A stretch of 58,242 nt of DNA from an uncultured Opitutia bacterium. GTDB lineage: Bacteria; Verrucomicrobiota; Verrucomicrobiia; Opitutales; Opitutaceae. The stretch is taken from contig CAITWF010000028.1 of the NCBI GenBank assembly GCA_903896015.1, positions 1-58,242 on the forward strand. The letters are read 5' to 3'. Shown one piece after another: positions 1 through 31,572 of this stretch. The notes beneath the pieces were generated by a model. It was given only the letters and a program-made list of their open reading frames with translations. It had not been told where the DNA came from and made no database searches. The first letter of the stretch is position 1. Each line of letters opens with the position of its first letter. The translations under genes were made by a program, and so were the position numbers.

Positions 1-1
1 C

Positions 2-130
2 GCCAACTGGCGCACCGTCCAAGCCACGCTGCGACAAATGCAACGCCTCAGCCGCCAAGTGCTCTTTACGACCATCCCGGGTACCCAGCGTCGCAAGCGG
101 CTCAGCAAGAAAACTTTGGGGCTTACTTAA
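2..130 (+). CDS. C-terminal fragment of an unidentified protein, possibly a transposase (partial at window edge)
   Basis: An open frame runs from the left edge to a TAA at 128-130 and gives 42 residues ending in KKTLGLT. It is very basic (RQMQRLSRQ, RRKRLSKK), which would suit the tail of a DNA-binding or transposase protein, but I do not recognise a family. It is too short and edge-truncated to prove coding. It is followed by about 60 bp with nothing visible before the convergent kinase gene. Confidence 0.35.
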   Translation, partial: ANWRTVQATLRQMQRLSRQVLFTTIPGTQRRKRLSKKTLGLT

Positions 131-192
131 GCGCCATTCAGGACTGACCTCACGCTGCAAACCGAATTTCGCCCGGCAAGTAGGATTTTACC

Positions 193-1416
193 CTAGCCGC
201 GCCGAATCTCCGAGCCCTGGAACCGGATCTGGATCCGGTAAACTTTCTTCACGCGGCAGGTGATTTGACCGGTCGCGGCATCGAACTTTTCCGGGATCTC
301 GATCTTGTGGAGGTCGACGACGGCGTGGAAGCCGCGCTCGGAAAACACGTCGATCAGCATCGCGAGAGCGGTCGCGTCCTCCAGCAGCGGCTCCTCGGTG
401 TTGACGTGCGCGGCCCCCGAGATCGCGTGGCGCTGCACGATGGGCATGACTTTCTTACGGATAAAATCAACGACGCGGCCGAACAGTTCCGGTTGGCCGA
501 ATTCGTAGCTGTCGAGCCGCTTCACCAGCTCTTGTCGGGCGTGAACGATAATTTCGTTGGCCACCGGCACGTGTCGCAGCCGATCGACCGTGCGCGGATC
601 GAGCTCGAGAGTGCTTTGATACTCGAGTTCCTGAAGGATGTTTTGCTCCACCTCCACCAGTGAGCCCTGCGCGTTGATGAAGTGGTAATGGAAGATTTCC
701 TTGAGCGATTGGAGCGCCTCCCACGTCTGCTCCTTGAAAACGCGGTAACGGCGTTGGGCGAGTGTCTGGTCGTGATCGGTCGGGCGATCCTCAAGGAGTT
801 CGCCGACGCCGGTGCGGCGGACTTCGTCGTTGTGCACTTTCGTCTCGCGGCCGCGTTTCAACTGACGCGCGATCGACTCCTTTTCGTCGACGAACAGCAC
901 CATGATGTGGATGGTCGGCTGGCGGAAGTGGATGCTGAGGGGCGTGCCGTAGAATTCGCGGCGCAGCGAGTGCATCTTGTCGACGAGCATCTTCAAACAC
1001 TCGACTTGGACGTGCGTGCGCGGGAAGCCGTCGAGGATGACGCCATCGTGGTATTCGGGACGGATCAGCTGGCGCAGCAGCAACCCGATTACCTCGCGAT
1101 CGCCGACCATGTTGCCGGCGTTCTTGAGGGCGCGGGCCTCGGGCGAATCGAGCAAAGCGCTGATGACGATGGGGCCGCAGGTTAGGCCGCGGCTTTTCGC
1201 GATGAAAGCGGTGTTGGTGCCCTTGCCGGCGCCGGGCGCACCGCCGAGGAGGATGATTTCCTTGGGGAACCGCAGGTTTTCGCGGCCAAAGTCCGCCTCA
1301 AGGTCTTGCCAGACGGAGCTGAAGATGAGTTGGGCGTCCTTGATTTCGAGATCGGTGACCTTGGGCGTCAACGGCGGCGGCGTGCTGGCAGCATGGGGGA
1401 GGCTGGCTTGGGACAT
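193..1416 (-). CDS. Adenylate kinase-like nucleoside monophosphate kinase with extra C-terminal domain
   Basis: Predicted to transfer phosphate from ATP to a nucleoside monophosphate, most likely AMP, in the cytoplasm. The 407-residue product has a P-loop GGAPGAGKGT at about residues 58-67, the NMP-kinase motif DGFPRT at about 129-134, and an Arg-rich segment ending in EDRPTDHD in the LID/arginine region. Normal bacterial adenylate kinases are about 190-220 residues. The remaining roughly 150 C-terminal residues are an additional domain of unknown role. ATG at 1416 is preferred; an in-frame GTG at 1455 would add 13 Ser/Pro-rich residues, and neither has a good Shine-Dalgarno site. Substrate specificity is inferred from motifs only. 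Confidence 0.85.
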   Translation of the reverse strand: MSQASLPHAASTPPPLTPKVTDLEIKDAQLIFSSVWQDLEADFGRENLRFPKEIILLGGAPGAGKGTNTAFIAKSRGLTCGPIVISALLDSPEARALKNAGNMVGDREVIGLLLRQLIRPEYHDGVILDGFPRTHVQVECLKMLVDKMHSLRREFYGTPLSIHFRQPTIHIMVLFVDEKESIARQLKRGRETKVHNDEVRRTGVGELLEDRPTDHDQTLAQRRYRVFKEQTWEALQSLKEIFHYHFINAQGSLVEVEQNILQELEYQSTLELDPRTVDRLRHVPVANEIIVHARQELVKRLDSYEFGQPELFGRVVDFIRKKVMPIVQRHAISGAAHVNTEEPLLEDATALAMLIDVFSERGFHAVVDLHKIEIPEKFDAATGQITCRVKKVYRIQIRFQGSEIRRG

Positions 1417-3064: not shown

Positions 3065-4864
3065 ATGCTCCGCACGCGTCTTATGCTCGGCCTCGTCCCG
3101 CTCCTGTTGCTCGTCGTCGGCACCGGCCTCTACTCGATCAACGTGAGCCGCGAACTCGCTGGGTCGCTCTCGCGCGACCTCGTCAACAACTACCGCGCAA
3201 TCGCCGCCTGCCAGCAGATGCGCGCTGCCGCGAATCTCATGAGCGCACTCGCCGATGCGCTCGGCGGCGAGGTGGGCGACGCGAAGCGAAGCTTGGAGAC
3301 CGAGCGCGCGAAATTCCGGCAAGACCTGATGGGCCAGGCCGCCTCGTCCGCCGGATCGCCGCGCGCGGTGCTGGTGGCAACGCTCGACGATGCCTTTCAA
3401 CGCTTCAGTGCCGCCGCCGAGCGACGCCTCGCGTTTGGCGGCATGACAGGATCGCGCGACGAACTGCAGCAAAAATCCGCCGCTGCTGGCGGCGTGCTCC
3501 GCGCGATCGAAGAACTCCAGCAGTGGGACGCCGCCGCTGCGCAACGCACGGCCGCGCGTGTCGCCGATCTCGCTCAGACCACCGAGCGCGTGCTGGTCAT
3601 CGCGATCGTCGTGGCGTTTGTGCTGGCGGCCTTGATCGCATGGCGGCTTGCACGCTCGCTGCTTGGGCCGATCCAGGCGCTTACGGCGTCGGCCGTCGCC
3701 GTCGGCGACGGCGACCTCGATCGCGTCGTGCCGGAGGTTTCAGGAGACGAACTCGGCCAGCTCGCGCGCGCCTTCAATACGATGGCCGCGAAATTGGCGG
3801 CCTACCGCGAAGCCACACTCGCGAAGGTCCTTCGTACGCAGCGCACGATGGAGGCCACGCTGACTTCGGCGCCTGATCCGGTGTTCGTCGTCGCCCGCGA
3901 TGGCACGGTGGAGATTCGCAACCCCGCCGCCGAGCAACTCCGGATCGCGGCGGTTCCCGCCGCACTCGCGGAGCCGCTCGCGCAGGTGCTGGCGACTGGC
4001 GAGCACTACTTGCCGACCGACTACAGCCGCGCGGTCGCGCTGCGTGTGGCGCGCGAGGACCGCCACTACCTCCCGCGCATCCTTGCGATCGGCGACAAGC
4101 TCACGGAGTTCAAGGGCGCGGCGGTGATTTTGCAGGATGTGACAAAATTCCGGCTGCTCGATGACGCCAAGACGAACCTCGTCGGCACCGTGAGCCACGA
4201 GCTGAAAACGCCGCTCACGAGCCTGCGATTGGCTGTCTATCTTTTGCTTGAACAGAAACTCGACGGCTTCACCGCGACGCAACGCGACCTGCTCGAAACC
4301 GCACGCGACGAAGCCGATCGGCTGCTCCGCATTCTCGACAACCTGCTCGATCTCGCGCGGCTCGAAGCCGGTGCCGCCACGCTCGATCGCGCCGCGACGA
4401 GCGTGGCCGCGTTGCTCGCTCCGATCGCGGACGAGGCGCGGGGCTTTTGCAGCGCTGCCGGGCAAAAATTGATCCTCGCGATCGCGCCCGGATCCGAGAC
4501 GCCGCGGCTCGCAGTCGACCCGGCGCGGTTGCGCCACGTGTTCATGAACCTTCTGACCAACGCTTCGAAATACTCGCCACCCGGTGGCACGATCACCCTG
4601 GCGGCGACGATCGCCGAGGGGAATTTTGTGCGTTTCGCGGTGCGCGACGAGGGGCCGGGGATTCCGGCCGAATCCGTTGCGCGCATCTTCGATCGATTCT
4701 ATCGCGTGCCGAACCAGGAGAAAACCGGTGCGGGTCTCGGCCTCGCGATCGCGCGCGAGATCGTCATCGCGCACGGCGGCAGCATCGGTTGCGCGAGCGA
4801 GCCCGGCTGTGGCGCGGAGTTTTATTTCCTGCTGCCGTTGCCCGCTACGTCTTCCGGTGGATGA
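3065..4864 (+). CDS. Membrane sensor histidine kinase (HAMP-PAS-HisKA-HATPase)
   Basis: A 599-residue inner-membrane kinase, presumed to phosphorylate the response regulator encoded 27 bp upstream. TM1 is at about residues 7-25, followed by a periplasmic helical region and TM2 at about 176-197. HAMP (GDGDLDRVVPEVSGDELGQL) comes next, then a small PAS-like segment (residues about 265-360), HisKA with H378 in SHELKTPL, and HATPase boxes N (NLLTNASKYSPP), G1 (DEGPGIP), F (FDRFYR) and G2 (GAGLGLAI). The order resembles KinB of the KinB/AlgB pair. The ligand is unknown. Its stop overlaps the convergent U32 gene by 20 bp. Confidence 0.93.
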   Translation: MLRTRLMLGLVPLLLLVVGTGLYSINVSRELAGSLSRDLVNNYRAIAACQQMRAAANLMSALADALGGEVGDAKRSLETERAKFRQDLMGQAASSAGSPRAVLVATLDDAFQRFSAAAERRLAFGGMTGSRDELQQKSAAAGGVLRAIEELQQWDAAAAQRTAARVADLAQTTERVLVIAIVVAFVLAALIAWRLARSLLGPIQALTASAVAVGDGDLDRVVPEVSGDELGQLARAFNTMAAKLAAYREATLAKVLRTQRTMEATLTSAPDPVFVVARDGTVEIRNPAAEQLRIAAVPAALAEPLAQVLATGEHYLPTDYSRAVALRVAREDRHYLPRILAIGDKLTEFKGAAVILQDVTKFRLLDDAKTNLVGTVSHELKTPLTSLRLAVYLLLEQKLDGFTATQRDLLETARDEADRLLRILDNLLDLARLEAGAATLDRAATSVAALLAPIADEARGFCSAAGQKLILAIAPGSETPRLAVDPARLRHVFMNLLTNASKYSPPGGTITLAATIAEGNFVRFAVRDEGPGIPAESVARIFDRFYRVPNQEKTGAGLGLAIAREIVIAHGGSIGCASEPGCGAEFYFLLPLPATSSGG

Positions 4865-26849: not shown

Positions 26850-28016
26850 ATGGCAAAAGAAGATTACTACGAGTTGCTCGGCGTGGAAAAAGGCGTCGAT
26901 GCGGACGCGCTGAAAAAAGCCTACCGCAAGAAGGCCGTGCAATACCACCCGGACAAAAATCCGGGCAACAAGGAGGCGGAGGAGATGTTCAAGAAAGTCT
27001 CGCACGCCTACGAAGTGCTCAGCGATCCCGAGAAACGCGTGGCCTACGATCGTTACGGCGCGGCGGCGTTTGAGGGCGGCGGCGGTGTGCCGCGCGGTCC
27101 CGGCGGATTTGGCGGCGGCGGCGGAAGCGGTGGTTTCCACGACCCGTTTGATATTTTCCGCGAAGTCTTCGGCCAGCAGGGTGGTGGCGGTGGCGGTGGA
27201 ATTTTCGACGAAATGTTTGGCGGCGGGGGCGGGCGGGAAGGTGGCCGTGACGGCGCCGATCTCCGCTACGATCTCGAGATCACGCTGGAGGAGGCGGCGC
27301 GTGGCGTGGAGAAGGAAATTTCGTTTCGCAAGGCGATGGCCTGCGATCGGTGCGATGGCTCCGGCGCCGAGCCGGGATCGAAGCGCGTGACGTGTCCGAC
27401 ATGTCGCGGTCACGGCCAAATCCGCCGCTCGGGTGGCATAATCACCTTCACGCAAACTTGCCCGACGTGCGGTGGTGCCGGCACGAAGGTGGAAAAGCCC
27501 TGCACGCAATGCCGTGGCGAGGGCCGCGTGGCGAAGAATACGAAGCTCAATGTGCGCATCCCGCCCGGCGTCGACACCGGCTCACGGCTGCGCTCGTCCG
27601 GCAACGGCGAGGCGGGCATGGCCGGCGGCCAGAGCGGCGATCTCTACATCGTTCTGGCGGTGAAGGAGCACGAACTCTTCGAGCGCCAGGGCGACGATCT
27701 GTTCTGTGAGATTCCGATCAAATTCACGCTGGCGACGCTCGGCGGCAACATCGAGGTGCCCACGCTGTTCGGTAAAGCCTCGCTGAAAATTCCCACCGCC
27801 ACGCAGAGTGGCACGACGTTCCGGCTGCGCAGCAAGGGCATGCCGAGCCTGCGCGGCGGGCACCAAGGCGACCAACTCGTGCGCGTAAGCGTCGAGGTGC
27901 CGCAGTCGCTCACGGGTGAGCAGAAAAAAATCCTGGAGGAATTCGCGCGGGTGAGCGGCGACGCCGCCGAGCCGACCTCGAAGAGCTTCTTCGAAAAGGC
28001 GAAGAAGTTTTTCTGA
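26850..28016 (+). CDS. dnaJ: Chaperone DnaJ
   Basis: 388 residues: J-domain with HPD at 33-35, Gly/Phe-rich linker (about 75-125), and four CXXCXGXG zinc motifs ([32 protein letters not shown]). Two beta-barrel substrate domains and a C-terminal dimerisation region follow. Complete and typical. It delivers clients to DnaK and stimulates its ATPase. It forms an operon with grpE; the IS607 element lies immediately downstream. Confidence 0.97.
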
Positions 28017-28237
28017 GGGTCGCTAACAGCTCCCAATTGTATCACCAAATATACCTATTTATATTGATTTAAACATACGCGAAGACACAGTGAGGAGAGA
28101 ATCATGGGTGCTCGAAAGAAAACCACCTGCGGTGAGATTGATAATCCGACCGGTTGCCCCGCGCGAGGGACCGCCGTCGAGCGAGCGGTAATTGGCAGAG
28201 TGTTCGTCGAGGTTGGAGCGAAGCAAAGGGGGCTTTG

Positions 28238-28819
28238 TTGAAGCTGAGCGCTTGGGCGGCCCAAGAGGGCCTGCACTATCAAACCGCGTGGCGGTTGTGG
28301 AAGACGGGCAAGTTACCGGTCCCGGCCAGGCAGCTTGCGACCGGGACGGTTTTGGTGGATGCGCCCGCGCGACCGGCGGAGCGCGGCGTTGCCCTGTACG
28401 CCCGGGTGTCCTCTTCCGACCAGGAAAAGGACCTCGAAGGGCAACTTGGGCGACTGGCGGTATTCGCAGCGGCAAACCATCTCACCGTGATCGCGACGGC
28501 GGCCGAAGTCGGCAGCGGTCTTAACGGCCACCGGCGAGGATTGATGGGACTTCTGCGTAATCCCGCGGTCGGAATCATTGTGGTTGAGCACCGGGACCGG
28601 TTGATGCGATTCGGCGCAGAATACGTCGAGGCGGCGCTGGCGGCGGACGGCCGCAAACTGCTGGTCGTGGACGACACCGAACTCAAAGACGATTTGGTCC
28701 AAGACGTGATCGCGGTGCTGACCAGCATGTGCGCCCGGCTGTATGGTCGCCGCTCGGCGAAGAATCGTGCCGCCCGGGCACTGGCGAGTTTGCAGCAGGA
28801 CCAAGCACCCGCGCCATGA
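28238..28819 (+). CDS. IS607-family serine recombinase (TnpA)
   Basis: 193 residues. TTG at 28238 is chosen because AAAGGGGG lies 5 nt upstream and because the product then starts MKLSAWAAQEGLHYQTAWRL, the normal N-terminal MerR-like DNA-binding helix-turn-helix. It continues GKLPVPARQLATGTVLV. The resolvase-type catalytic domain follows: S58 in YARVSSSDQ, later EHRDRLMRFG and VLTSMCARLYGRRSAKNR at the C-terminus. This order (DNA-binding domain before catalytic domain) is diagnostic for IS607 recombinases. It excises and inserts the element through a circular intermediate. Its TGA overlaps the tnpB start as ATGA. Confidence 0.93.
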   Translation: MKLSAWAAQEGLHYQTAWRLWKTGKLPVPARQLATGTVLVDAPARPAERGVALYARVSSSDQEKDLEGQLGRLAVFAAANHLTVIATAAEVGSGLNGHRRGLMGLLRNPAVGIIVVEHRDRLMRFGAEYVEAALAADGRKLLVVDDTELKDDLVQDVIAVLTSMCARLYGRRSAKNRAARALASLQQDQAPAP

Positions 28820-30387
28820 TTACGATCAGCACCAAATTAAAAGACCGCGCGCTGGAGCCGGTGTTGGCCCGTTATGCGGAACTGTTCGCCCGGCTGGAGC
28901 GGTTGCTGTTCGTCGCGCTCTACGTCAAGGCCGAGCCCGTGGCTGCGGCCAAGCGCCGTTTCGTGGCCGAGCACCAAATAACCGCCCGCCAATTTAACGC
29001 CGTCCACAACCAGTTGCAGGCGCGGGTGGAGGCGTGGCGGGCCGCGCGCGAACGCAACGTCGCGACGACCCGGGGCCAAATCGAAAAGTGCGAGCTGGCG
29101 CTGGCCAAACTGCAACGGCCGGTCGCACGGCATCAAAAACAGCGCCGGCTGGCGCTGCTTGCGGCCCGGCTGCGGCGGCTGGAAACCGAACTCGCGGCCA
29201 AGATTCCCGCGATCTGCTTTGGCTCCCGCGCGCTGTTTCGCGAGCAGTTTAAGCTGCAAGCCAACGGGCACGCCTCGCACGCCGCATGGCGCGAGCAGTG
29301 GCGGGCAAAACGCGCGGCCGGGTTCTTCGTGCTGGGCTCGTCCGACGAAACCTGCGGCAACCAGTCGTGCCAATACCGCGACGGCCAACTCCACCTCCGG
29401 CTGTCCGGTGCGCTGGGCGGCGGCACCGTGGCGATCCCCGTCGCCTTCGCCTATCGCCAAGCCGACCTCTTGGCCGCGTTGACCCCCAAGGCGCAAGCGG
29501 TGCAGCGGGGGCCGCGCAAAGGCTCGTTCGTGGAGCGCGGCGATGCCGTCAGCTACCGGTTTCTCCGGCGGGATGACCGGTGGTATGTTTTCGCGTCGTT
29601 CGCGACCGCGACCGCGCCGGTCGTCACCGACCCGCAATCCGGCTGTGTCGGCGTGGACCTGAACCCGTGGGGGTTGGCGGTCACGCGGATTGATCGGAGC
29701 GGCAACATCGCCGATCGCTTCGATGTAGTGTGGCAGATCAAGGATCGCGACCAAGATCAAGTACAGGCGGCACTCGGGGATGCCGTGCGGGTTGTCGCCC
29801 GCTACGCTTTGACGCAGGGCGTCCCGGTTGCCATCGAACGGCTCGATTTTGCGGAGGCGAAAAAACAGGGCCGGGGTGCGGCCGGCAACCGGATGCTGTC
29901 CGCGTTCGCCTACGCGGCTTTCGCTCGTATCATGCAAGGCAGGTGCGCGCGTGACGGCATCGGATTGTTGCCGGTCAATCCAGCGTTCACCTCCGTCATC
30001 GGCCGAGGCAAGTTTGTCGATGGCTACGGCCTGTCCGTGCATCGCGCCGCCGCCGCCGTGATTGCACGACGCGCCCTCAATTTTGGAGAAAAACTGCGGA
30101 CTCGTTCTGCCGGAACCGCCCGGGGGCTACCGGAAAGGAATCGCACCCGGCACGTCTGGCACAACTGGCGGCTCTGGGCCAAAGCCCGGCAGCCACGCCG
30201 CCGTTCTTCCACCCAACCGAAAGGAAGCCGGGGCTCACAGCCCCAGAAAGGCCGAAGCTTATGCTTTGATCCGGAGTCACCCAACGGCAGTTCCTGCCGA
30301 GCTGACTCCGTGACGCCCCATCCGGGCGCCTTGACCCGCGGTGCGACTCCGCAGGCTAGCCGCGAACACTGTTCCCGCGGCGCCTAG
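28816..30387 (+). CDS. TnpB-related protein (RuvC-like, variant active site)
   Basis: 523 residues. N-terminal helical/coiled-coil region (about 60-130), then ICFGSRALFREQF (about 133-145) and the family stretch GFFVLGSSDETCGNQSCQ (169-186), a wedge-like beta domain, then a split RuvC domain. RuvC-I D281 (CVGVDLNPWG), RuvC-II E341 (VAIERLDF). At the RuvC-III position the sequence is GYGLSVHRAAAAVIARRA, with H409 where canonical TnpB has the catalytic Asp (D.NAA.NI); D402 is close by. The CxxC zinc finger is absent. NCBI-style name would be IS200/IS605 family accessory protein TnpB-related. About 65 C-terminal residues are low-complexity and coincide with the hairpin cluster. Canonical TnpB is an omegaRNA-guided DNA nuclease; activity of this clade is not established to my knowledge. 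Confidence 0.9.
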   Translation: MITISTKLKDRALEPVLARYAELFARLERLLFVALYVKAEPVAAAKRRFVAEHQITARQFNAVHNQLQARVEAWRAARERNVATTRGQIEKCELALAKLQRPVARHQKQRRLALLAARLRRLETELAAKIPAICFGSRALFREQFKLQANGHASHAAWREQWRAKRAAGFFVLGSSDETCGNQSCQYRDGQLHLRLSGALGGGTVAIPVAFAYRQADLLAALTPKAQAVQRGPRKGSFVERGDAVSYRFLRRDDRWYVFASFATATAPVVTDPQSGCVGVDLNPWGLAVTRIDRSGNIADRFDVVWQIKDRDQDQVQAALGDAVRVVARYALTQGVPVAIERLDFAEAKKQGRGAAGNRMLSAFAYAAFARIMQGRCARDGIGLLPVNPAFTSVIGRGKFVDGYGLSVHRAAAAVIARRALNFGEKLRTRSAGTARGLPERNRTRHVWHNWRLWAKARQPRRRSSTQPKGSRGSQPQKGRSLCFDPESPNGSSCRADSVTPHPGALTRGATPQASREHCSRGA

Positions 30388-30420
30388 CACGTTCGTCGCA
30401 ACCGGCCTAAAAAGCCTTGC
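30230..30420 (+). ncRNA. Candidate omegaRNA (reRNA) scaffold at the element's right end
   Basis: Three clean hairpins in about 150 bp: GGGGCT-CAC-AGCCCC (30230-30244); a two-tier stem GGAGTCA (30273-30279) with TGACTCC (30303-30309) enclosing CGGCAG-TTC-CTGCCG (30285-30299); and GCCGCGAAC-ACT-GTTC(c)CGCGGC (30359-30381). They overlap the 3' end of the TnpB-related gene, on the same strand and ending near the element boundary, exactly where TnpB guide RNAs arise. The guide would be read from flanking DNA downstream. The 5' and 3' ends are guesses. Confidence 0.6.
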
Positions 30421-30447
30421 GATAAACGCGTATAGTTTAAGGAACGG

Positions 30448-31572
30448 TTAACGCCGCCCTAGTTTTACGTCCATCCAGACCGCGAGCGTGAGCACGCCGC
30501 CGCGCGCGATGAATTTTATCTCCGGCGCCACGGCGAGGAGCGTCATGCCATTCAGCAGCGCCGTCATGATTAGTGCGCCGAAGATCACGCCCCACACGGT
30601 GCCGCGTCCACCCTTGAGCGCCGTGCCGCCGATCACGCACGCGGCGATCGCGTCGAGTTCCATGAGATCGCCGACGGTGGTCGTCGAGGCGCCGGAGTAG
30701 GCCGTCGTCATGAAGCCGGTGAGCGCGACCGTCACACCCGTCAGCACGTAAGCGCCGACGAGCACCCGGTTGACCGCGATGCCGGAGAGCACGGCGGCCT
30801 CCTCGTTGCCGCCGATCGCGTAGAGGTAGCGCCCGAAGGGCGTGTGCTGCGTGAGGAAATAGACGACGCCTGCCGTGCCCGCGAGCACGAGCAGCGAGAA
30901 CGGAACGCCGCGGAAGTGGTTGAAGAAATAAACCAGCCCGAGCGAGGCTGCCGCCATCACGAGCCACTTCGCGAGGGCGGTGCCAGCGGGTGGATTGGCG
31001 AGTTGGTGAGCGGTGCGGGCGGCGCGACCGCGCCACGCGAGAAGACCGAGCGCGAGCGCGACCAGCGCCGCAAGTGCGAAACCGATCGAGGCGGGCAGGT
31101 AATAGGTAGTGAGCCGCGAGTAGAGATTTTCCTCGTCGCCGCGCGATACCGGGATCGTGGAGTTTTGGATGACGAGCCAGAAGAGCCCCTTGAAAATCAG
31201 CAGGCCGCCGAGCGTGATAATGAAAGACGGGATGCGCTGCCGCACGATGAGTGTGCCCATCGCGGTCCAGAGCAACAACGCCGCAACAAACGCCGCGCCC
31301 ATGGCCGCCGGCGCCGACCAGTTGTGCTGAAACACAAGCACCGCCGCGATTCCACCGATGAGCCCGACGCCGCTGCCGACCGAGAGATCGATCTGGCCGG
31401 TGAGCAGGATCATGAACATCCCAAGCGCGAGCGTGCCGGTGATCGAGAACTCGACGATGAGCTGGGTGAGATTGCGCGGGCCGAGAAACGCCGGCTCCTT
31501 CACCGCGAAGAACGTGGCGATCGCGACGAGCGCGATCGGCATGGCGAGGTTTTTGAGGAGTTTGGCGTTCAT
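30448..31572 (-). CDS. xylH: Sugar ABC transporter permease, XylH-like
   Basis: 374 residues with about ten TM helices of the RbsC/XylH (BPD_transp_2) family: GMFMILLTGQIDLSVGSGVG near the N-terminus and the coupling-helix region around ATGFMTTAYSGASTTTVGDLMELDAIAACVIGG (shown in part; the genomic protein reads LTGFMTTAYS). It is the membrane channel of a high-affinity pentose importer, likely D-xylose. Last gene of xylF-xylG-xylH, 6 bp after the ATPase gene, with the IS607 element just beyond its stop. Confidence 0.88.
   Translation of the reverse strand: MNAKLLKNLAMPIALVAIATFFAVKEPAFLGPRNLTQLIVEFSITGTLALGMFMILLTGQIDLSVGSGVGLIGGIAAVLVFQHNWSAPAAMGAAFVAALLLWTAMGTLIVRQRIPSFIITLGGLLIFKGLFWLVIQNSTIPVSRGDEENLYSRLTTYYLPASIGFALAALVALALGLLAWRGRAARTAHQLANPPAGTALAKWLVMAAASLGLVYFFNHFRGVPFSLLVLAGTAGVVYFLTQHTPFGRYLYAIGGNEEAAVLSGIAVNRVLVGAYVLTGVTVALTGFMTTAYSGASTTTVGDLMELDAIAACVIGGTALKGGRGTVWGVIFGALIMTALLNGMTLLAVAPEIKFIARGGVLTLAVWMDVKLGRR

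What the first reader, a model, noticed from the sequence alone, without database searches (positions are those of the whole stretch)
28816..30387. TnpB-related protein with a non-standard RuvC active site in an IS607 element
D281 and E341 are in place, but the RuvC-III position reads LSVHRAAAAVIARR, with His for the catalytic Asp, and the zinc finger is missing. I recall this pattern as a clade feature of TnpB-related proteins (ICFGSK...FFVLGSxDET), not a private mutation. Its chemistry has not, to my knowledge, been shown. It could be a guided nuclease with a relocated acidic residue (D402 is near), a nickase, or a guide-directed binder. Because it is intact and translationally coupled to a full recombinase, it is probably functional.
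Basis: partly seen in the sequence, partly recalled or inferred. Interest (0 to 1): 0.8.

Follow-up and report, generated by a model that had tools for sequence, protein, structure and literature searches.

The report
TnpB relative with histidine active site
A bacterial jumping gene carries a relative of the RNA-guided DNA cutter TnpB in which one of the three active-site acids is a conserved histidine, as happens in some ordinary RuvC enzymes, so it is probably a working guided nuclease with a slightly different metal site rather than a broken copy.

Summary
ORF 28816-30387 (523 aa) is a TnpB-related protein whose start overlaps the stop of an IS607 serine recombinase; the element spans about 28017-30447. 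D281 and E341 are in place, RuvC-III carries His409, and the zinc finger is absent. This is a clade feature: of 61 zinc-finger-less rows (window included, several phyla) 43 read D-N-E-H at 281/283/341/409, 16 D-N-E-D, 1 D-N-E-A, 1 D-N-D-H. Asp and His exchanged at least three times on the tree. No relocated acid was found; D402 is not conserved. dN/dS is 0.12 over the RuvC part. The AlphaFold model (pLDDT 85) matches Cas12f, ISDra2 TnpB and RuvC; alignment end points put His409 at ISDra2 residue 361 and at residues 139/143 of Deinococcus/Thermus RuvC. The gene's 3' end overlaps a conserved RNA (synonymous changes fall about fourfold; one covarying hairpin; right end AGGAACGG), the expected guide scaffold. 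Best reading: an RNA-guided nuclease with a D-E-H site, possibly Mn2+-preferring. Cleavage is inferred; a non-cutting binder remains possible. TnpB clades with altered RuvC-III motifs are in print (one named RIII-r4); whether this is that clade I could not check.

The parts
28017..30447 (+). IS607-family element (GG cores at both ends)
   Evidence: The window, L003 and L004 carry it at three different sites; shared sequence starts at GGG (28017) and ends at AGGAACGG (30447)
28154..28819 (+). tnpA, IS607 serine recombinase ORF (likely start the TTG at 28238, from comparison with L005)
   Evidence: NF033518 179.8 bits, cut-off 110; Pfam Resolvase 57.1 bits
28816..30387 (+). tnpB-related gene, D-E-H RuvC protein, 523 aa
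   Evidence: open frame; guided_TnpB E 5.7e-9 but below cut-off; fold of Cas12f/TnpB
29656..29664 (+). RuvC-I: D281-L-N283
   Evidence: Asp and Asn in 61 of 61 rows
29836..29838 (+). RuvC-II: E341
   Evidence: Glu in 60 of 61 rows, Asp in L059
30040..30042 (+). RuvC-III position: His409
   Evidence: His in 44, Asp in 16, Ala in 1 of 61 rows
30172..30447 (+). predicted guide-RNA scaffold (reRNA/omegaRNA), overlapping the 3' end of tnpB; exact 5' end unknown
   Evidence: dS 0.086 against 0.32; fold z -4.79 for 30230-30447, control +0.56, last 128 nt alone -0.97
30359..30381 (+). conserved hairpin, 6-bp stem here, loop with CTGTTC
   Evidence: 4 of 7 pairs with changes on both sides on 8 selected rows; model R1 42.6 bits
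30440..30447 (+). right-end motif AGGAACGG with GG core
   Evidence: present in 20 of 61 rows within 500 nt, next base pyrimidine in 20 of 20; three different right flanks for this element
30448..30467 (+). predicted guide (first bases of the flank), length assumed
   Evidence: inference from TnpB biology; position read

Best explanation
This is an IS607-family element whose second gene is a TnpB-related, RNA-guided nuclease with an exchanged RuvC metal site, D281-(N283)-E341-H409, in place of D-E-D. Proposed working: the 3' end of the tnpB transcript, up to the transposon right end at 30447, is the guide-RNA scaffold, and the host sequence after the right end (30448 onward) is the guide. The complex recognises the empty donor site or an allele lacking the element, next to the GG core and its left flank, and RuvC cuts it. 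His409 does the job of the third metal ligand, as His139 does in Deinococcus RuvC. The cut promotes retention of the element by recombinational repair, the role generally proposed for TnpB (recalled). Shown here by computation: element ends, a conserved RNA at the 3' end, the fold, conservation and exchange of H/D, purifying selection. Inferred: RNA binding, cleavage, the role of His409, metal preference, biological role.
For: 61 zinc-finger-less rows: 43 D-N-E-H, 16 D-N-E-D, 1 D-N-E-A, 1 D-N-D-H (27/12/1/1 of 41 at 80% identity). H and D need at least 3 changes on a tree built without the trait's columns; a cyanobacterial Asp clade sits inside the His clade. dN/dS codons 1-452 is 0.151 and 0.164 (window against L003, L004), RuvC part 0.12; L003 against L004 RuvC: 0 nonsynonymous, 11 synonymous differences. 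Model pLDDT 85.2; SpCas12f1 Z 17.6, ISDra2 TnpB Z 16.4, T. thermophilus RuvC Z 13.7, D. radiodurans RuvC Z 12.9; end points put 281 at residue 7 of both RuvCs and 409 at 361, 143 and 139. PMC9228767, passages: in DrRuvC Asp7, Glu67, His139 and Asp142 are each needed; His139 is the third metal ligand. Guide RNA: tail dS 0.086 against 0.32, 0.200 against 0.928 in a second lineage; fold z -4.79 against +0.56 for an internal control; hairpin covariation.
Against: No activity was measured. Cas12m members, even with D-E-D, bind without cutting dsDNA (PMC11013384, passages), so conserved residues do not prove cleavage. DrRuvC has a fourth acid (Asp142); here i+3 is Ala412, Ala in 28 of 28 His representatives. 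The residue mapping is counted from end points of a structural alignment, not from printed columns, and I had no coordinates to measure distances. The curated TnpB model scores 35.7 bits against a cut-off of 100. L059 has Asp for E341 and L022 Ala at 409. RNA evidence is uneven: second-lineage folds z -2.96 and -0.97; alignment-wide covariation is weak (2 of 67 pairs) or unfavourable (covariation term +2.7, 5 of 58 pairs); the hairpin was scored on 8 rows chosen for loop register.
Confidence: 0.6

Rival explanations
1. RNA-guided DNA binder that does not cut, like Cas12m: the His spoils catalysis and the complex blocks transcription, or marks the donor site for the recombinase.
For: Cas12m proteins with H-D-D, N-D-D and D-E-D sites bind and silence without dsDNA cleavage (PMC11013384, passages); a Cas12m chain (UnCas12m4a) is the only related PDB hit of profile A1, E 0.028, and Cas12m2 is among the Foldseek matches.
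Against: D281 and N283 are kept in 61 of 61 rows and E341 in 60 of 61, and Asp and His exchange repeatedly, which a dead site would not need. In Cas12m the His is at the first, not the third, position.
Confidence: 0.2
2. The RuvC site is kept to trim its own guide RNA, or to nick one strand, and not to make double-strand breaks.
For: TnpB trims its own omegaRNA with RuvC (PMC10278001, passages). A conserved RNA overlaps the gene's end.
Against: None direct; no assay was possible. It is less economical than one site doing both jobs, as in TnpB.
Confidence: 0.13
3. A decaying or accidental copy: the His is a mutation on the way to loss and the frame is open by chance.
For: A deletion derivative exists (L005/L007/L012: tnpB codons 1-62 joined to 434 onward), so the element does decay in places.
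Against: dN/dS 0.15 to 0.16, RuvC part 0.12; His in 44 of 61 rows from several phyla; tnpB intact in 9 of 9 copies of a related element, tnpA shortened or split in 5 of 9.
Confidence: 0.02

Closest known systems
ISDra2 TnpB (IS200/IS605) and canonical IS607 TnpB such as ISXfa1
   Same: Fold over the whole length (8exa Z 16.4), carried by a transposon beside its transposase, conserved RNA at the right end
   Different: His in place of the RuvC-III Asp, no zinc finger, long insertions, weak score on the TnpB family model
Cas12f
   Same: Best structural match (SpCas12f1 Z 17.6); profile A6 of Thermus-type and His-type relatives matches Cas12f1 chains at E 2.8e-8
   Different: No CRISPR array found within 27500-31000; D-E-H site
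RuvC of Thermus thermophilus and Deinococcus radiodurans
   Same: RuvC domain fold (Z 13.7 and 12.9); His where E. coli RuvC has Asp138 (PMC9228767, passages)
   Different: RuvC is a dimeric Holliday-junction resolvase with a fourth acid (Asp142 in DrRuvC), Ala412 here
TnpB clade RIII-r4 and the other rearranged clades (PMC10278001, section 13 read)
   Same: TnpBs of IS elements with a non-standard RuvC-III motif
   Different: Could not be compared: the clade's sequences and the census paper are not held
Cas12m
   Same: Cas12-type protein with His in some RuvC triads
   Different: His at RuvC-I, CRISPR-associated, shown not to cut dsDNA (PMC11013384, passages)

Membership tests
Canonical TnpB (guided_TnpB, NF040570) | Score above the curated cut-off of 100 bits | tested here: not met
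   35.7 bits, E 5.7e-9; 25 of 25 relatives also match the model at E up to 0.01
Canonical TnpB (guided_TnpB, NF040570) | RuvC D-E-D triad | tested here: not met
   D281, E341, His409; 43 of 61 rows D-N-E-H
Canonical TnpB (guided_TnpB, NF040570) | Zinc finger between RuvC-II and RuvC-III | tested here: not met
   0 of 61 rows with two CxxC; Pfam TNB model matches 9 of 25 relatives weakly
Canonical TnpB (guided_TnpB, NF040570) | TnpB/Cas12 fold | tested here: met
   8exa Z 16.4, 9i8y Z 17.6, model range 1..425 and 1..452
Canonical TnpB (guided_TnpB, NF040570) | Guide RNA from the transposon right end | tested here: inconclusive
   Conserved RNA by dS drop, fold and hairpin, with weak results; no expression data
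Canonical TnpB (guided_TnpB, NF040570) | RNA-guided DNA cleavage | not testable with these tools
   needs an assay
IS607 element | IS607 serine recombinase | tested here: met
   NF033518 179.8 bits, cut-off 110
IS607 element | Ends at matching GG dinucleotides | tested here: met
   Ends read from three insertion sites of this element and nine of a related one
IS607 element | No terminal inverted repeats | tested here: met
   No inverted pair of 18 nt or more at the two ends in 27500-31000; shorter pairs not looked for
RIII-r4 TnpB clade | Its particular RuvC-III rearrangement | not tested
   The definition's source is not held
CRISPR-Cas12 (Cas12m, Cas12f) | CRISPR array beside the gene | tested here: not met
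   No repeat array in 27500-31000
TldR (nuclease-dead TnpB repressor) | Loss of RuvC catalytic residues (recalled) | tested here: not met
   D281 and E341 kept; only the third position differs

The most novel reading that the evidence does not exclude
A large, multi-phylum branch of IS607-associated TnpB relatives are active RNA-guided nucleases with a D-E-H metal site. It repeats inside RNA-guided enzymes the Asp-to-His exchange seen between E. coli and Deinococcus RuvC, and may shift metal preference toward Mn2+. Asp and His are interchangeable there, with His tied to mobile IS607 copies and Asp to stand-alone copies.
Probability: 0.45. Interest if true: 0.75.

Novelty: new variant of a known kind. 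Interest (0 to 1): 0.6.

Why it matters
If the D-E-H site cuts, the third acid of the TnpB/Cas12 RuvC triad is replaceable by His in nature, and 'nuclease-dead' calls made from a missing RuvC-III Asp would be unsafe. It also offers compact (about 450 aa core), zinc-finger-free guided proteins with a readable right end (AGGAACGG, then a pyrimidine) and a hairpin that marks the guide-RNA scaffold, so the test can be set up directly. If it does not cut, it is a widespread transposon-borne guided binder that keeps D and E for something else, such as trimming its own guide RNA.

Tried and rejected
Relocated acid (D402): rejected, Asp in 7 of 61 rows. Other acids as stand-ins: D293 and D344 are each Asp in 25 of 28 His rows, so neither is invariant. 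Decayed copy: rejected. CRISPR effector: no repeat array within 27500-31000. Rfam: nothing near a gathering score in 27900-30600. Pfam: 0 families for the protein. PADLOC: only weak Cas12f matches, best E 0.0013. PDB by sequence: 0 hits for the single protein; with profile A1 12 hits, led by ubiquitin-like chance matches (best E 0.002), with UnCas12m4a at E 0.028. Viral-contig scans with the window protein, A1 and L050 gave none; four others gave loci. Clean empty site: not obtained. In the same-genus genome G645 dnaJ is conserved to 28019 and the ABC gene from 30453, but about 1 kb of other sequence lies between them. In one search two rows (G265c, G420a) were trimmed at a wrong start; I ignore their numbers and repeated the set. 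Rows dropped before the alignment: L046, L061 (two frames), L026 (two frames), L015, L013, L105, because broken or partial; open frames under 250 aa never entered. Of the 75 rows aligned, 14 (L100-L115 group) were set aside as a different group whose ordinary RuvC-III Asp is aligned one column off. Motif CTGTTC: found in 22 of 61 rows; 14 of these were examined for a stem (12 with at least 6 bp, L019 and L042 with 5); over all loci and both strands 23 of 92 occurrences have such a stem, true ones and copies included. Paper searches: no title, abstract start or passage that I saw describes a His-type RuvC-III TnpB clade; the census that names the rearranged clades is not held, and most subscription papers are not in the library. 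The 5 folding and 4 structure-search possibilities left were not used.

Full report
OBSERVATION. ORF 28816-30387 (+) is intact, 523 aa. Its ATG lies in the ATGA that ends the recombinase ORF 28154-28819. That recombinase is an IS607 transposase (NF033518, 179.8 bits, cut-off 110; Pfam Resolvase 57.1 bits). The tnpB product scores weakly on TnpB models (guided_TnpB 35.7 bits against 100; TIGR01766 22.8 against 32). The nearest named relatives, L003 and L004 (90% identity), are Opitutae MAGs, so the host is probably of that group. In its phylum 6 of 387 genomes searched, the window's own included, have a match.

THE ELEMENT. The window, L003 and L004 carry the element at three different sites, so its ends can be read directly. 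The left end starts at GGG (28017), right behind the dnaJ stop. The right end is AGGAACGG at 30440-30447. Nine further copies in genomes G265, G420 and G426 end in the same AGGAACGG with nine different right flanks. Over the 61 zinc-finger-less rows, 20 have AGGAACGG within 500 nt after RuvC-III, 6-124 nt after the stop codon. All 20 are His rows (20 of 44; 0 of 16 Asp rows; 0 of 1 Ala row); 9 are the G265-type copies and 3 the Opitutae ones, the rest from Thermaerobacter (2), Streptomyces (2), Photobacterium, Mycolicibacterium, Curtobacterium and a viral contig. The base after it is a pyrimidine in 20 of 20. The motif alone is not rare (2 expected per window, 1 found); its value lies in position and flanks. 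IS607 elements insert by recombination between matching dinucleotides, so the right-flanking nucleotide is fixed (PMC10711439, section 25, read).

THE ACTIVE SITE. In the first alignment of 33 usable rows (window included), the 28 His rows all have D281, N283 and E341, and no other acid is invariant (D293 25/28, D344 25/28). In the enlarged set of 61 rows: 43 D-N-E-H, 16 D-N-E-D, 1 D-N-E-A (L022), 1 D-N-D-H (L059). At 80% identity: 27, 12, 1 and 1 of 41. On a tree made without columns 398-424 (67 rows with 6 outgroup rows, quick method, several long branches flagged), His and Asp need at least 3 changes. The cyanobacterial Asp rows L021 and L048, with viral L065, nest in the His clade, and L059-His sits in the Thermus-type Asp clade. 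N283 recalls N385 of Fanzor SpuFz1, which holds Mg2+ with D383, E541 and D606 (PMC10432273, passages).

FOLD. AlphaFold2 on residues 1-460 with 25 rows: pLDDT 85.2, pTM 0.69; D281 on strand 277-283, E341 at the end of strand 338-341, His409 at the start of helix 408-420. Foldseek: 26 PDB chains at E up to 0.001, mostly Cas12 types, ISDra2 TnpB (8h1j, 1.7e-4), Tex/Spt6 and RuvC. VIA-align: SpCas12f1 Z 17.6 (310 aligned, 4.0 A), ISDra2 TnpB 8exa Z 16.4 (283, 4.4 A), T. thermophilus RuvC 4ep4 Z 13.7 (135, 2.9 A), D. radiodurans RuvC 7xhj Z 12.9 (132, 3.2 A). Counting in from the end points without gaps gives 281 to residue 7 of both RuvCs, and 409 to 361 in ISDra2, 143 in Tth RuvC and 139 in Dr RuvC. 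In DrRuvC the site is Asp7, Glu67, His139, Asp142; each substitution removes activity, His139 replaces Asp138 of E. coli RuvC, and of the metals tested only Mn2+ works (PMC9228767, passages). That ISDra2 D361 and Tth H143 are catalytic is recalled, not read. The gapless count is an inference.

SELECTION. dN/dS over codons 1-452 is 0.151 (L003) and 0.164 (L004); RuvC part 0.12 in both. In the second lineage the body gives 0.21 between groups (18 pairs) and 0.29 within groups (3 and 15 pairs). There tnpA is shortened or split in 5 of 9 copies (open frames 81-166 aa against 189-198) while tnpB is full length in 9 of 9.

THE RNA. Codons 453-523 behave unlike protein: dS 0.086 against 0.32, dN/dS 0.9. 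The second lineage shows the same: dS 0.200 against 0.928, dN/dS 0.73 against 0.21. 30230-30447 folds at z -4.79, an internal coding control at +0.56, the last 128 nt alone at -0.97; second lineage -2.96 and -0.97. Covariation over the whole scaffold is weak: 2 of 67 pairs change on both sides in the second lineage; in the window's group 5 of 58, with an unfavourable covariation term of +2.7. One hairpin, 30359-30381, is well supported: it keeps a loop with CTGTTC on a 6-7 bp stem of changing sequence. On 8 rows in the same register 96.4% of cells pair, 4 of 7 pairs change on both sides, sliding by 1-3 columns gives at most 57.1%, and 0 of 500 shuffles reach the covariation score. I chose these 8 rows by loop register; of 14 rows examined 12 have a stem of at least 6 bp, while L019 and L042 reach only 5, and that search picks out stems. 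A covariance model from the 8 rows finds it in L016 (41.2 bits) and L058 (29.2 bits, E 1.2e-4), not in the model, and more weakly in L053, L005 and L057; of the 7 Asp rows and the 1 Ala row among 35 sources only L065 gave a match, at E 0.86. IS607 TnpB of ISXfa1 makes a roughly 150 nt right-end RNA reaching past the transposon boundary (PMC10711439, section 25).

MECHANISM. The most economical reading is an RNA-guided nuclease in which His replaces the third Asp. Persistence of D, N and E with either H or D, repeated exchange and strong purifying selection are hard to square with a dead domain. Against it: Cas12m members with H-D-D, N-D-D and even D-E-D sites bind without cutting (PMC11013384, passages; there the His is first in the triad). 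RuvC is also used by TnpB to trim its own RNA (PMC10278001, passages), which could alone keep the site.

KNOWN OR NEW. PMC10278001 (section 13 read) describes five TnpB clades including RuvC-III rearrangement RIII-r4, says that such clades need not be inactive, and cites a census not held here. The present clade may be RIII-r4 or outside it. Hence 'new variant of a known kind', with the possibility 'already known' open.

OTHER PATTERN. A TnpA lies upstream in 26 of 43 His rows and 0 of 11 Asp rows with at least 700 nt held (27 of 44 and 0 of 16 over all rows). The rows are related, so this is a lead only.

Noticed in passing
L054 (Thermus phage Lalka27b), 1201-3280: An Asp-type relative of the window's protein lies directly before an annotated CRISPR repeat region and a DNA methyltransferase in a phage genome; possibly a CRISPR-recruited TnpB relative.
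   Followed up: no
L005 (same stretch L007, L012), 4001-4435: Internal deletion derivative of this element in an Opitutus-like MAG: tnpA open, tnpB codons 1-62 joined to 434 onward.
   Followed up: partly
L002/L120, end of contig C71 of the window's genome: The first 40 codons of a second, 60% identical tnpB run off the contig end, so the genome probably holds a further copy.
   Followed up: no
L117, L118, L119 (contigs C20, C69, C95 of the window's genome): Other TnpB-related genes of the same genome read VVGRN at the RuvC-II strand, where Glu is expected, and ADVNG at RuvC-III; they may be a RuvC-II-rearranged type.
   Followed up: no
L052 (Ammonifex degensii plasmid), 1-2499: A His-type TnpB relative sits immediately downstream of an iscB gene.
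   Followed up: no
L025, L049, L050, L053: In these actinobacterial relatives the right-end motif lies only 6 nt after the tnpB stop, and RuvC-III carries a short insertion before the His.
   Followed up: no
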